The notes: generated by a model from the sequence alone, not told the origin. A stretch of 64,000 nucleotides of DNA from Gemmatimonadaceae bacterium (GCA_025934775.1 JAICWO010000003.1:186001-250000); one strand, 5' to 3'. Counted from the first letter of the stretch, positions 49,500-59,931 are shown. Program-made: numbers and translations.

Positions 49500-49572
49500 T
49501 GACCCGGGCGGGTCTCGAACCCGCGACCTACGGATTAAAAGTCCGTTGCTCTACCAACTGAGCTACCGGGTC
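49500..49572 (-). tRNA. tRNA-Lys (UUU anticodon)
   Basis: On the minus strand a complete cloverleaf folds: acceptor GACCCGG/CCGGGTC, D arm with AGCTCAGTTGGTAGAGC, anticodon stem ACGGA/TCCGT around loop CTTTTAA (anticodon TTT), variable loop AGGTC, and T arm GCGGG-TTCGAGA-CCCGC. The CCA end is not encoded. Its 5' half is the integration target of the element to the right. Confidence 0.95.
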
Positions 49573-49573
49573 G
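49535..49573. repeat. Left attachment repeat (39 bp, in tRNA-Lys)
   Basis: The 39 bp from TTAAAAGTCCGTTGCT to CTACCGGGTCG are identical to 59893-59931, in the same orientation. It covers tRNA positions from the 5' end to the anticodon loop, plus one base. Confidence 0.95.
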
Positions 49574-49639
49574 GTGTTGTATCAAACTTCGCCTGCTGGA
49601 ACCACTTAGACAACTCGTTGCGCGACGGTCCGGCTCTGA

Positions 49640-50755
49640 CTAGCCCGCCGATTGTGCCCGAATTGTGCCCTTCGCGAATGGAAGCACGCTCGGCGAGCCT
49701 TGCGCGGCACCGTGAAGCACAGCGAGCTTCGCCACGCCTTCGGAGAGATCGGCGGCTGACGTGATCGCGTAGCGGCGATACACCGCCTCGGTCTTGTGGC
49801 CCGTCAGCTTCATGGCGACGGAGCGCGACACGCCTGCACGTTCGAGATTCCGAACCGCCGACCGGCGAAGATCGTGAACGAGGCGGCCTTCGTGACCAGC
49901 GGCTTTGCAGGCGGCGTCCCACGCACGCCGATAGGACTTGATCGGTTTGCCGCCGCGATGGAAGACGTGAGCGATTATCCGGCCCTTCTTCTTCTCCATT
50001 TCGCGTGTCTCGTCGCGCTGCTGCTTGAGCAGATCGGCGAGCGGCTGCAATACGGCGAATGGGAACTCGCGACCTTCGCGATTCTTCGTCGTACCGGGCT
50101 CCAGTCGCACGACACCCGCCTCGAAGTTCACTTGCCCCCATGTCAGCCCGCGCGCCTCGCCCGCGCGCCAGCCAGTGAGGTAGAGGAAGCGAACGAACGG
50201 CCGAAGCGCGATCGGAAGATGCGACTCCACCTTCGCGAAGTCAGCAGGCTCAAAGAATCCCTTGCGCGCATTGTCCACCTTCACGCTCGGGATGTATGGC
50301 CGCTGCGCCGCCTTCCCCGCGCGCACGGCGAGCGAGAAGGCTCGCTTGAGGCACGCCAGTTCGTACGCGATCGTCGCGGGCGCGGCCTCGGCCTCTTGGC
50401 GCAGGCGGATGTACGAGGCGATCCGATCGCTCGTGATGTCTGGCACGCGCGAGAAGGCGAAGAACTCACGCAGATGCACAAGGGCCGTCTCGACGCGCTT
50501 CACCGAGCGGTGCCCGTTCAGCTTGTAGTCGTCGAGCAGCATCGTCACGATGTTCTCGAACGTCGTCTTATCGGCGTCGGGTCCGATCAGTCGCCCGGCA
50601 CCCATCTCAGCGAGTCGCCGCTTCAGCAGCTTCACCGCGTCCCCACGCTGTGTCGAATGGCTCGACTCCCGATACTTGCGTCCGCGATACGAGTACCTGA
50701 TCCAAAAGGTCTCGCCTCGCTGGTAGACGCCTCCTGTTCCTGCCGTTCGCTTCAT
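49640..50755 (-). CDS. int: Tyrosine recombinase / integrase
   Basis: The 371-aa protein has an N-terminal Arm-type region (RTAGTGGVYQRGETFWIRYS), a SAM-like core-binding domain, and the catalytic domain with Arg in TGWRAGEARGLTW, HxxR in LVHDLRRSAVRNLE and the H/Y of LTGHKTEAVYRRY. It recombines the attachment repeats. ATG overlaps the upstream HTH gene stop by 4 nt. Its last codons contain a TGTGCCC heptamer pair (49653-49670). Confidence 0.95.
   Translation of the reverse strand: MKRTAGTGGVYQRGETFWIRYSYRGRKYRESSHSTQRGDAVKLLKRRLAEMGAGRLIGPDADKTTFENIVTMLLDDYKLNGHRSVKRVETALVHLREFFAFSRVPDITSDRIASYIRLRQEAEAAPATIAYELACLKRAFSLAVRAGKAAQRPYIPSVKVDNARKGFFEPADFAKVESHLPIALRPFVRFLYLTGWRAGEARGLTWGQVNFEAGVVRLEPGTTKNREGREFPFAVLQPLADLLKQQRDETREMEKKKGRIIAHVFHRGGKPIKSYRRAWDAACKAAGHEGRLVHDLRRSAVRNLERAGVSRSVAMKLTGHKTEAVYRRYAITSAADLSEGVAKLAVLHGAAQGSPSVLPFAKGTIRAQSAG
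49653..49670 (+). promoter_or_regulatory. Paired TGTGCCC heptamer, left copy
   Basis: TGTGCCC at 49653-49659 and 49664-49670, 11 bp apart (one helical turn), within the end of int. The same pair occurs at 51370-51387 (inverted) and 59756-59773; likely arm-type sites for Int or Xis. Confidence 0.7.
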
Positions 50756-50997
50756 TCTGCGTTCCTCCGATGATTGGTGAGAGAACGCTGCACGCGCTTC
50801 GACTCCTTCGCCGCTGCGGTCGCGATAGCATCCAACGCATCGGCGACGGCCTCGGCCACGGCCTCGGTTGCGTTCCGTTCGCCGGAGACGATACGGGCGA
50901 GTTGCACATGTGAGATGCCGGTGCGGCGCGCGAGTTCGCGAAGACTCACCGGCGCGCTGGCGAGCGCCTGCTGGACCGTGCGCGTGAGAGCGTTCAT
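50752..50997 (-). CDS. Small HTH regulator upstream of integrase
   Basis: The 81-aa protein starts MNALTRTVQQALASAPVSLR; LRELARRTGISHVQLARI plus VSGERNATEAVAEAVADAL is an XRE-like helix-turn-helix. The start at 50997 is preferred over ATG 51009 because the latter lies inside the palindrome at 51002-51018. Its stop overlaps the int ATG by 4 nt, so regulator and integrase are made together; binding of the palindrome would give autoregulation and control of integration. Confidence 0.85.
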   Translation of the reverse strand: MNALTRTVQQALASAPVSLRELARRTGISHVQLARIVSGERNATEAVAEAVADALDAIATAAAKESKRVQRSLTNHRRNAE

Positions 50998-51001
50998 TGG
51001 C

Positions 51002-51018
51002 GGTAACATATTGTTACC
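51002..51018. promoter_or_regulatory. Palindromic operator candidate GGTAACA-TAT-TGTTACC
   Basis: A perfect 7-bp inverted repeat with a 3-bp centre, 4 bp upstream of the ATG of the HTH-int pair. Its position on the start suggests repression of translation start or of the promoter by the HTH protein. Confidence 0.75.
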
Positions 51019-51038
51019 AGAGTCAGAGTTACGCAAGA

Positions 51039-51365
51039 TCAGCTTCTCGGGCGATTGGCGGCCCAGCGTTCGAGGCCGCGCGCATCGAAGCGCAGTGTGC
51101 GGTGGCCGATCTTCCTCGTGAATGGCAGATCGCGGGCGTGTCGGTAGAGCCAACTCACCTTGACGCTCAGTCGCGCCGCCGCGTCGTCGATCGAGAGTAG
51201 TTCATCGCGATGCCCATCCGGCGCTGGACGTGCCGGTTCGGCCGCCGTCGTTGCAGAGCGTGCGACCACGGCGGTGAGCGCACGCGCTAGCTCACCGGCG
51301 AGCGCGGGCAGATCGCTCGTCGGCGTCTCCTGAACGAGGGCCGTCAGCGTCTCAGCGGGGCTCAT
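51039..51365 (-). CDS. xis: Excisionase-like (HTH_17/AlpA-type) DNA-binding protein
   Basis: The 108-aa protein ends in a winged-helix: LLSIDDAAARLSVKVSWLYR and ARDLPFTRKIGHRTLRFDAR then GLERWAA, the family of excisionases. ATG 51365 is chosen over an earlier GTG at 51386 because the heptamer pair 51370-51387 lies between them. Precedes the HTH-int pair on the same strand. Likely controls excision direction. Confidence 0.75.
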   Translation of the reverse strand: MSPAETLTALVQETPTSDLPALAGELARALTAVVARSATTAAEPARPAPDGHRDELLSIDDAAARLSVKVSWLYRHARDLPFTRKIGHRTLRFDARGLERWAANRPRS

Positions 51366-59382: not shown

Positions 59383-59401
59383 GCGTTCTCTGACGCAGGC
59401 C

Positions 59402-59431
59402 GAAGGGGTCGTCCGCGAGGGCGGCCCCTTC
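59402..59431 (+). terminator. Terminator after the DGQHR gene
   Basis: GAAGGGGTCGTCC (59402-59414) pairs with GGGCGGCCCCTTC (59419-59431) with two mismatches or wobbles, followed by TTGCTTCC. Ends the plus-strand cargo transcript. Confidence 0.65.
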
Positions 59432-59696
59432 TTGCTTCCCGCACACGGCGTCGAAGAGACCCCCCCAAAGGGGTACGCCCGATGCGCGTAAGTCATTGCG
59501 GCTTACCACGTGGAGGGCGTCCCTCTCAGGGGCCGGTCGCCATTGCACCATCAGATGACACACCGCAAGCGGCCCACAGTGGTAGCATCGCGCGGACTAA
59601 CGCCTTCTCGTTCGCGGAGTTCGCGATCTCCACAGTGGGAGGGGGATTGCTTCGGACACCGGCGATCGACCGATTCGGGCGACAGCGGCGTGGTGT

Positions 59697-59740
59697 GCGT
59701 GACAAGCGTGACGAGCGTGACAGTGCGTGACATGCGTGAC
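59697..59740 (+). repeat. Iteron array: five GCGTGAC heptamers
   Basis: GCGTGAC at 59697, 59706, 59715, 59725 and 59734, spaced 9, 9, 10 and 9 bp, followed by CTGTCAC. The regular one-turn-minus-one spacing resembles iterons bound by a Rep or Xis protein and sits 16 bp from the heptamer pair and 153 bp from the attachment repeat. Confidence 0.85.
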
Positions 59741-59755
59741 CTGTCACAAGTTTGC

Positions 59756-59773
59756 TGTGCCCGAACTGTGCCC
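59756..59773 (+). promoter_or_regulatory. Paired TGTGCCC heptamer, right copy
   Basis: TGTGCCC at 59756-59762 and 59767-59773 (11-bp period). The 18-bp unit differs from the left copy at 49653-49670 by one base. Confidence 0.7.
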
Positions 59774-59892
59774 GCACGCGCGTCAACCATCAACAAAACG
59801 AGGGACCGTCTCTCGACGATCCCTCGCGTAAGTAGCATTCTCACAAGACCATCGGCGATCATCGTCCATCACCGTGAAGCGCGCCGTCCGGC

Positions 59893-59931
59893 TTAAAAGT
59901 CCGTTGCTCTACCAACTGAGCTACCGGGTCG
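59893..59931. repeat. Right attachment repeat (39 bp)
   Basis: Identical to 49535-49573. It is the displaced 5' half of the original tRNA-Lys; it lacks the rest of the cloverleaf, so no second tRNA is made. It lies 26 bp from the stop of the next gene on the minus strand. Confidence 0.95.

What the first reader, a model, noticed from the sequence alone, without database searches (positions are those of the whole stretch)
49535..59931. Integrative element in tRNA-Lys with an exact 39-bp repeat and a novel gene set
The 39-bp exact direct repeat, an integrase just inside it and the single intact tRNA define a 10.4-kb element. Its set (Int, Xis-like, small HTH, minimal HUH protein, CI-like switch, XamI-like RM, DGQHR protein, small membrane proteins) has no capsid or conjugation genes and does not match any element class I know exactly. 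It could be a phage-satellite or IME-like defence carrier.
Basis: partly seen in the sequence, partly recalled or inferred. Interest (0 to 1): 0.85.

Follow-up and report, generated by a model that had tools for sequence, protein, structure and literature searches.

The report
Small tRNA-integrated defence-carrying genetic element
A 10.4-kb mobile DNA element sits in the only lysine-tRNA(UUU) gene of a bacterium and carries its own integrase, a small virus-type DNA-replication enzyme and a restriction-modification immune system; distant cousins with the same parts list occur in related bacteria, so it belongs to a recurring but little-described kind of helper-dependent element.

Summary
An exact 39-bp repeat (49535-49573 / 59893-59931) bounds a 10,358-bp element with an integrase beside an intact tRNA-Lys(UUU), the genome's only one. 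A paired motif, GGGCACA-N3-CGGGCACA, occurs exactly three times in 64 kb: near each end and in front of the int genes (chance 0.02). This shows one integrase unit rather than unrelated insertions. The repeat is the 5' half of the tRNA, so the element supplies that tRNA's upstream sequence; this orientation is rare but known. Same-genus genomes keep integrase fossils at the same tRNA. The HUH protein matches PF23343, and its predicted fold resembles microvirus replication initiators. Of 14 HUH loci, 9 have a tyrosine integrase nearby and 6 are bounded by tRNA repeats (5-17 kb); several carry defence genes (type III/IIG R-M, OLD, Olokun). A few HUH or integrase relatives carry terminase genes; the window element has no terminase, capsid or conjugation gene recognised. 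Best reading: a helper-dependent integrative element that excises by Int/Xis, replicates as a circle by HUH rolling circle, and carries XamI-type R-M as cargo. Excision, replication and transfer are inferred, not shown. New variant of a known kind.

The parts
49500..49572 (-). tRNA-Lys(UUU), intact, only copy in the genome; 5' half supplied at the integration junction
   Evidence: ARAGORN; single copy by pattern search of the 99%-complete genome
49535..49573 (.). att repeat, tRNA side (39 bp, 5' half of tRNA through anticodon loop plus 1 bp)
   Evidence: exact repeat; two copies only in genome
49653..49670 (-). paired GGGCACA site, inferred integrase arm-type site, tRNA end
   Evidence: 3 in window, expected 0.02; same site at the end of int in L066 and L086
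49574..49639 (-). inferred element-borne promoter region of tRNA-Lys (conserved AGTTGTCTAAGT...GAAGTTT block)
   Evidence: alignment with G001, G005, L086 upstream regions where int is decayed; no sigma-70 consensus match
49640..50755 (-). tyrosine integrase, 371 aa
   Evidence: PF00589 E=7.9e-20, phrog_1 E=1e-47
50752..51009 (-). small XRE/HTH_3 protein overlapping int by 4 bp
   Evidence: PF01381; same gene order in L080
51039..51365 (-). HTH_17 excisionase-like protein, inferred RDF/Xis
   Evidence: PF12728 above cut-off, phrog_66 excisionase; homologues upstream of int in 14 loci
51370..51387 (+). paired GGGCACA site in front of the HTH17-XRE-int genes (inferred autoregulation)
51498..52043 (-). 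HUH endonuclease, inferred rolling-circle replication initiator (WHH, HVH, YVAK motifs)
   Evidence: PF23343 E=2.7e-7; conserved motifs; fold resembles microvirus Reps and SIRV1 ORF119
52180..52407 (-). second small HTH_17/excisionase-like protein
   Evidence: PF12728 E=0.0024 below cut-off, phrog_2907 excisionase E=0.003; 44% identical protein near int in L066
52482..53006 (+). CI-like putative repressor, divergent from the excisionase/HUH/int genes
   Evidence: weak: PF07022 E=0.002, phrog_2328 E=0.0015; divergent layout
53021..53323 (-). XRE regulator, divergent from the cargo genes
   Evidence: PF01381 E=5e-10
53403..53807 (+). protein of unknown function
   Evidence: no family; frame uncertain: a 106-aa minus-strand frame (53466-53786) outscores it in the coding scan
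53812..54078 (+). small protein with a hydrophobic stretch (putative membrane)
   Evidence: inspection; no family above cut-off
54081..54239 (+). small protein with a hydrophobic stretch (putative membrane)
   Evidence: inspection; no family
54415..54795 (+). protein of unknown function
   Evidence: no Pfam family
54899..56542 (+). type II DNA methyltransferase (Eco57I-type N6-adenine class)
   Evidence: PDLC03222 E=2.5e-198, PF07669
56539..57510 (+). XamI-family restriction endonuclease, overlaps methyltransferase gene by 4 bp
   Evidence: PF09572 E=1.6e-38; 49-57% identical XamI enzymes on plasmids
57520..57870 (+). protein of unknown function
   Evidence: no family above cut-off
57918..58082 (+). 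54-aa basic protein of unknown function
   Evidence: no family; good coding score
58246..59382 (+). DGQHR (DndB/DpdB-like) protein
   Evidence: TIGR03187 E=8.7e-31, DpdB E=7.7e-16, PF14072 E=2.5e-12
59695..59740 (+). five GCGTGAC iterons at 9-10 bp spacing, inferred excisionase sites on the long att arm
59756..59773 (-). paired GGGCACA site, inferred integrase arm-type site, far end
59893..59931 (.). att repeat, far end (original 5' half of the tRNA gene)

Best explanation
A 10.36-kb helper-dependent (non-conjugative, capsid-less) integrative element. Integrase, helped by an HTH_17 excisionase, recombines two 39-bp att copies at the anticodon loop of tRNA-Lys(UUU), releasing a circle and restoring the original tRNA gene. 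Because the duplicated part is the 5' half of the tRNA, the integrated element provides the sequence upstream of the only tRNA-Lys(UUU) gene. The circle is then replicated by rolling circle from an origin nicked by the small HUH protein. A divergent repressor/excisionase region sets integration versus excision. The XamI-type restriction-modification pair plus DGQHR protein are defence cargo that also selects for keeping the element. Transfer to new cells needs a helper, most likely a phage. Shown: element limits, att repeat, repeated integrase-type sites, gene content, recurrence of HUH-integrase-tRNA elements. Inferred: excision, replication mode, defence activity, promoter supply, helper and transfer.
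For: Exact 39-bp repeat, unique to the two ends. Paired GGGCACA site at both ends and before the int genes, 3 in 64 kb versus 0.02 expected, kept in L066/L086. HTH17 beside Int in 14 loci, with the XRE in L080 too. Same tRNA-Lys used again: int fossils in G001 and G005 of the same genus and in L086 with a 42-bp 5'-half repeat. HUH family and fold of replication initiators. HUH protein near a tyrosine integrase in 9 of 14 loci, 3 of the other 5 being cut off within 0.75 kb by contig ends; six HUH elements bounded by tRNA-derived repeats. Defence genes in sister elements. Terminase small subunit in the L015 HUH element (PF03592 E=1.6e-36) and a terminase large subunit in the L061 HUH locus.
Against: No excised circle, empty site in a syntenic relative, or transfer has been observed. 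The window element has no recognised terminase, so the phage-helper step rests on relatives. The HUH protein was found in only 1 of 72 loci fetched by the integrase (many are truncated), so Int and HUH modules are shuffled and need not act together. No nick site or double-strand origin was identified. The integrase profile used was built partly from the same integrases, although Pfam confirms six of the sister integrases independently.
Confidence: 0.62

Rival explanations
1. Mobilizable element (IME): the HUH protein is a minimal relaxase that nicks an oriT and the element is carried by a helper conjugation system.
For: HUH enzymes include relaxases (general knowledge); the element lacks packaging genes.
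Against: The protein matches the replication-initiator family PF23343 and no Mob/relaxase family; fold and sequence neighbours are microvirus initiators and SIRV1 ORF119; two HUH relatives sit with terminase genes instead.
Confidence: 0.13
2. A decayed satellite or prophage remnant: integrase end and repressor survive, packaging and structural genes were lost, and the R-M genes hold it in place; it no longer moves.
For: Integrase relatives L034 and L123 are 9-10 kb att-bounded elements with terminase, portal or protease genes; int fossils at the same tRNA show decay is common.
Against: Integrase, HTH proteins, HUH, all three GGGCACA pairs and both att copies are intact and the att copies are identical; no broken gene was seen inside.
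Confidence: 0.2
3. A chromosomal defence island into which an unrelated integrase gene and R-M genes were inserted separately.
For: R-M, DGQHR and integrase relatives are each found apart from one another.
Against: The same integrase-type paired sites lie at both ends and before int; the att repeat is exact; cargo lies wholly inside.
Confidence: 0.03

Closest known systems
PICMI (phage-inducible chromosomal minimalist island; PMC10803314)
   Same: Small (6 kb), Int plus AlpA/HTH_17, no capsid-remodelling or terS genes, some carry R-M or other defence systems, replication consistent with rolling circle reported
   Different: PICMI models require a DUF3987/DUF5906-type primase and the fis locus; here a HUH protein stands in place of a primase and the site is the tRNA-Lys 5' half
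PICI / cfPICI
   Same: Specific att site, Int, AlpA-like protein, divergent repressor, small size; integrase relatives L034 and L123 look cfPICI-like (terminase, portal or protease)
   Different: No primase-replicase, terminase, capsid or head genes recognised in the window element
AICE (actinobacterial ICE such as pSAM2)
   Same: From general knowledge: tRNA att site, Int/Xis, rolling-circle initiator, circular replicative form
   Different: No FtsK/TraB-type transfer protein; different HUH family; different phylum
IME (integrative mobilizable element)
   Same: Non-conjugative integrative element with a HUH-superfamily enzyme
   Different: HUH protein is of the replication-initiator type PF23343, no relaxase family matched
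5'-tRNA-half integrating elements (Zhao and Williams 2002, cited in PMC6563490)
   Same: Recombination with the 5' part of a tRNA gene, element on the 5' side
   Different: Described as considerably less frequent than 3'; here seen with att repeats twice in one integrase clade (window, L086) and again with a different integrase in G133

Membership tests
tRNA-targeted integrative element | direct repeat of a tRNA part at both ends, tyrosine integrase inside next to the tRNA | tested here: met
   39-bp exact repeat, PF00589 integrase 66 bp from the repeat
tRNA-targeted integrative element | empty attachment site in a relative with the same flanks | tested here: inconclusive
   flanks are not syntenic in the five same-genus genomes; joined flanks give an intact tRNA
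PICI | terminase small subunit or other packaging-redirection gene | tested here: not met
   none in Pfam for all element genes, PHROGs for ten of them
PICI | primase/replicase (pri-rep) | tested here: not met
   no primase or helicase family; HUH protein instead
cfPICI | capsid, portal, protease and terminase genes | tested here: not met
   no hit
PICMI | Int, AlpA (PF12728 allowed), primase DUF3987/DUF5906, fis locus (PMC10803314) | tested here: not met
   Int and PF12728 met; primase absent; site is tRNA-Lys
IME | relaxase and oriT | tested here: not met
   no relaxase family; oriT not testable
ICE/AICE | conjugation or TraB/FtsK transfer genes | tested here: not met
   no such family among element proteins
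HUH replication initiator (PF23343) | HUH and downstream catalytic Tyr motifs, HUH-type fold | tested here: met
   W43, H97-x-H99, Y136-x-x-K139 conserved; fold hits microvirus initiators
XamI type II restriction-modification | XamI-family endonuclease with its methyltransferase | tested here: met
   PF09572 and PDLC03222/PDLC03585; recognition sequence and activity not tested
phage satellite | packaging in helper phage particles | not testable with these tools
   needs induction and particle DNA

The most novel reading that the evidence does not exclude
The window element belongs to an undescribed family of HUH-replicating, tRNA-targeting hitcher elements spread through Gemmatimonadota: a HUH initiator plus an exchangeable tyrosine integrase and HTH_17 excisionase, 5-17 kb, carrying exchangeable defence systems, some members with terminase genes and some using the 5' half of a tRNA or carrying their own replacement tRNA, so that they control expression of an essential tRNA.
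Probability: 0.4. Interest if true: 0.7.

Novelty: new variant of a known kind. Interest (0 to 1): 0.52.

Why it matters
Much defence-gene traffic is thought to ride on small elements that cannot move alone, but outside a few well-studied groups they are hard to recognise because they lack hallmark genes. A HUH initiator beside a tRNA-targeting integrase gives a searchable signature for such elements in a poorly studied phylum. The integrase clade also lets one ask how an integrase switches from the 3' to the 5' half of a tRNA, and what happens when a mobile element becomes the upstream region of an essential, single-copy tRNA gene.

Tried and rejected
Empty-site search by synteny: both flanks searched in the five same-genus genomes; flanks not adjacent there, so no test. 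HUH alignment of nine members too divergent for a collection scan; a four-member alignment found nothing in IMG/VR, and there was no plasmid match. So the reach of the HUH class outside this phylum is largely unmeasured; the one exception seen is L081 (Acidobacteria). The sigma-70 promoter scan found nothing in the element, which says little for an organism of another phylum. The idea that int C-terminal fossils persist only because they hold the tRNA promoter was dropped: such fossils also occur beside tRNAs in the usual 3' orientation. A single origin of 5'-half targeting was not supported: the quick integrase tree needs several changes, and several 5' labels rest on strand only, without an att repeat. 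DGQHR and XamI genes were not shown to form one system: relatives are scattered.

Full report
CHECK OF THE OBSERVATION. tRNA-Lys(ttt) at 49500-49572, minus strand, is intact. It is the only tRNA-Lys(UUU) gene found in the 99%-complete genome. Joining the flanks with one repeat copy leaves a perfect tRNA-Lys. The unit is 10,358 bp, slightly lower in G+C (63%) than its surroundings (67-69%).

ONE UNIT. GGGCACA-N3-CGGGCACA occurs three times in the window: 49653-49670, inside the end of int; 59756-59773, 120 bp inside the far att copy; and 51370-51387, just before the HTH17-XRE-int genes. Shuffled sequence gives 0.02 on average, and none of 100 shuffles gave three. The same motif lies at the end of int in the two nearest integrase relatives, L066 and L086. 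Placed like this, the sites look like integrase arm-type sites, and the middle one suggests self-regulation (inference). Five GCGTGAC iterons at 9-10 bp spacing lie beside the far-end pair (59695-59740), a plausible excisionase site. This argues strongly against a chance assembly of unrelated insertions.

TARGET ORIENTATION. The repeat covers the 5' half of the tRNA gene up to the anticodon loop, and the element lies on the tRNA's 5' side. Integrated elements usually take the 3' half; the 5' case is considerably less frequent but known (PMC6563490, citing Zhao and Williams 2002). In the integrase's family (72 loci) most neighbours show the usual orientation, for example 59-bp 3'-half repeats in tRNA-Leu of Nitrospira. 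The window, L086 (tRNA-Lys, 42-bp 5'-half repeat) and L066 (tRNA-Met, orientation by strand only) form one supported clade (SH-aLRT 99, quick tree) with the reversed orientation. Upstream of tRNA-Lys a block AGTTGTCTAAGT...GAAGTTT is kept in the window, G001, G005 and L086 although int is decayed in the last three. It could be an element-derived promoter; this is inference, and the sigma-70 scan was silent.

SAME SITE, OTHER OCCUPANTS. In the same genus, G001 and G005 carry C-terminal fossils of the same integrase (63-82% identity) beside tRNA-Lys, and G002 carries a different element there with a HerA-like protein. The site is used repeatedly.

THE HUH PROTEIN. The 181-aa protein matches PF23343, replication-associated ORF2/G2P. 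Its weak sequence neighbours among phages are microvirus replication initiators, and in the PDB SIRV1 ORF119 (E=6e-4 by profile). The AlphaFold model (pLDDT 75) hits microvirus replication initiators in the viral fold library (best E=8e-7) and SIRV1 ORF119 first in the PDB (E=1e-3). The histidine pair and the tyrosine (Y136) are invariant in nine distant members and W43 too; K139 is kept in most. Rolling-circle initiation is therefore the likeliest job; origin and activity are not shown.

SISTER ELEMENTS. A profile of the HUH protein found it in 16 of 395 genomes of the phylum. I examined 14 loci, including the window and L081. Nine have a tyrosine integrase within 8 kb; of the other five, three end within 0.75 kb at a contig edge. 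Six are bounded by tRNA-derived repeats: window (39 bp, Lys), L015 (46 bp, Met, 5.4 kb), L060 (46 bp, Arg, 5.1 kb), G133 in a closed genome (51 bp, Pro 5' half, 17.4 kb), G039 (43 bp, Arg, 17.1 kb) and L059 (13 bp, Lys, 8.1 kb). Their integrases are of different families, so the integrase is exchangeable. Cargo: OLD nuclease, type III R-M and ArdC in G133; Olokun-like proteins and a BrxD/SngB ATPase in the L061 locus; type IIG-like gene in G039; a methyltransferase with Mrr domain and a PLD-domain protein in L059. L015 has a terminase small subunit and the L061 locus a terminase large subunit. Two integrase relatives from IMG/VR, L034 and L123, are 9-10 kb, att-bounded and carry terminase plus protease or portal genes.

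MECHANISM. Most likely: Int plus HTH_17 excisionase excise the circle; HUH starts rolling-circle replication; a divergent repressor controls this; the XamI-type R-M pair and DGQHR protein are defence cargo; a helper, probably a phage, moves the DNA. Only the anatomy is shown. The phage helper is suggested by terminase-bearing relatives, not by the window element itself.

COMPARISON. Tested definitions of PICI, cfPICI, PICMI, IME and AICE each fail on at least one defining gene (see membership table). In working style it is nearest to PICMIs and PICIs with a HUH initiator in place of the primase (PICMI: PMC10803314). It fits the broad idea of hitcher elements (PMC11389934). Defence cargo on satellites is well known (PMC9122126). 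No paper found in the library searches describes HUH-type tRNA elements of this phylum, but the library is incomplete, so absence is weak evidence.

ORGANISM. Nearest named relatives of the element are Gemmatimonadaceae/Gemmatimonadetes MAGs, so a Gemmatimonadota host is likely (inference).

LIMITS. No reads, no syntenic empty site, no experiment. Gene starts are model-based. The frame of the 53403-53807 gene is doubtful. The HUH class outside this phylum was hardly sampled.

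Noticed in passing
L059 2561-2633, 2703-2776, 10670-10708 (G264:C23): The host tRNA-Lys(UUU) is split by the element with only a 13-bp shared core (ATTAAAAGTCCGT at 2595-2607 and 10670-10682); the element carries a complete tRNA-Lys(UUU) next to its integrase, and no other tRNA-Lys(UUU) was found in that genome. This looks like tRNA-dependent lysogeny (PMC10865867) but in an element without recognised phage genes.
   Followed up: partly
L123 112-9551 and L034 47-9791 (IMG/VR): Two 9-10 kb elements bounded by 46- and 64-bp tRNA repeats (Lys, SeC), with primase, terminase and portal (L123) or terminase small and large subunits plus head protease (L034): cfPICI-like satellites filed as viral contigs.
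   Followed up: partly
L015 2016-7456 (G007:C331): 5.4-kb element in tRNA-Met with HUH protein, terminase small subunit and an integrase with a broken frame: a minimal satellite-like element.
   Followed up: partly
window 48521-49464: HTH_3 gene followed by a nucleotidyltransferase-like gene whose LVGG..ALAIHG motif holds an in-frame stop (about 49078), so the second gene looks broken; outside the element, on the other side of the tRNA.
   Followed up: no
L040 13988-17487 (G002:C7): A different integrative element in tRNA-Lys of the same genus, with integrase and a HerA-like ATPase, in the usual 3' orientation.
   Followed up: no
G133:C1 2123496 and 2140525: An 18-bp repeat CGCACACTACTCGCACAA close to both ends of the G133 element, possibly its own integrase arm-type sites.
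   Followed up: no
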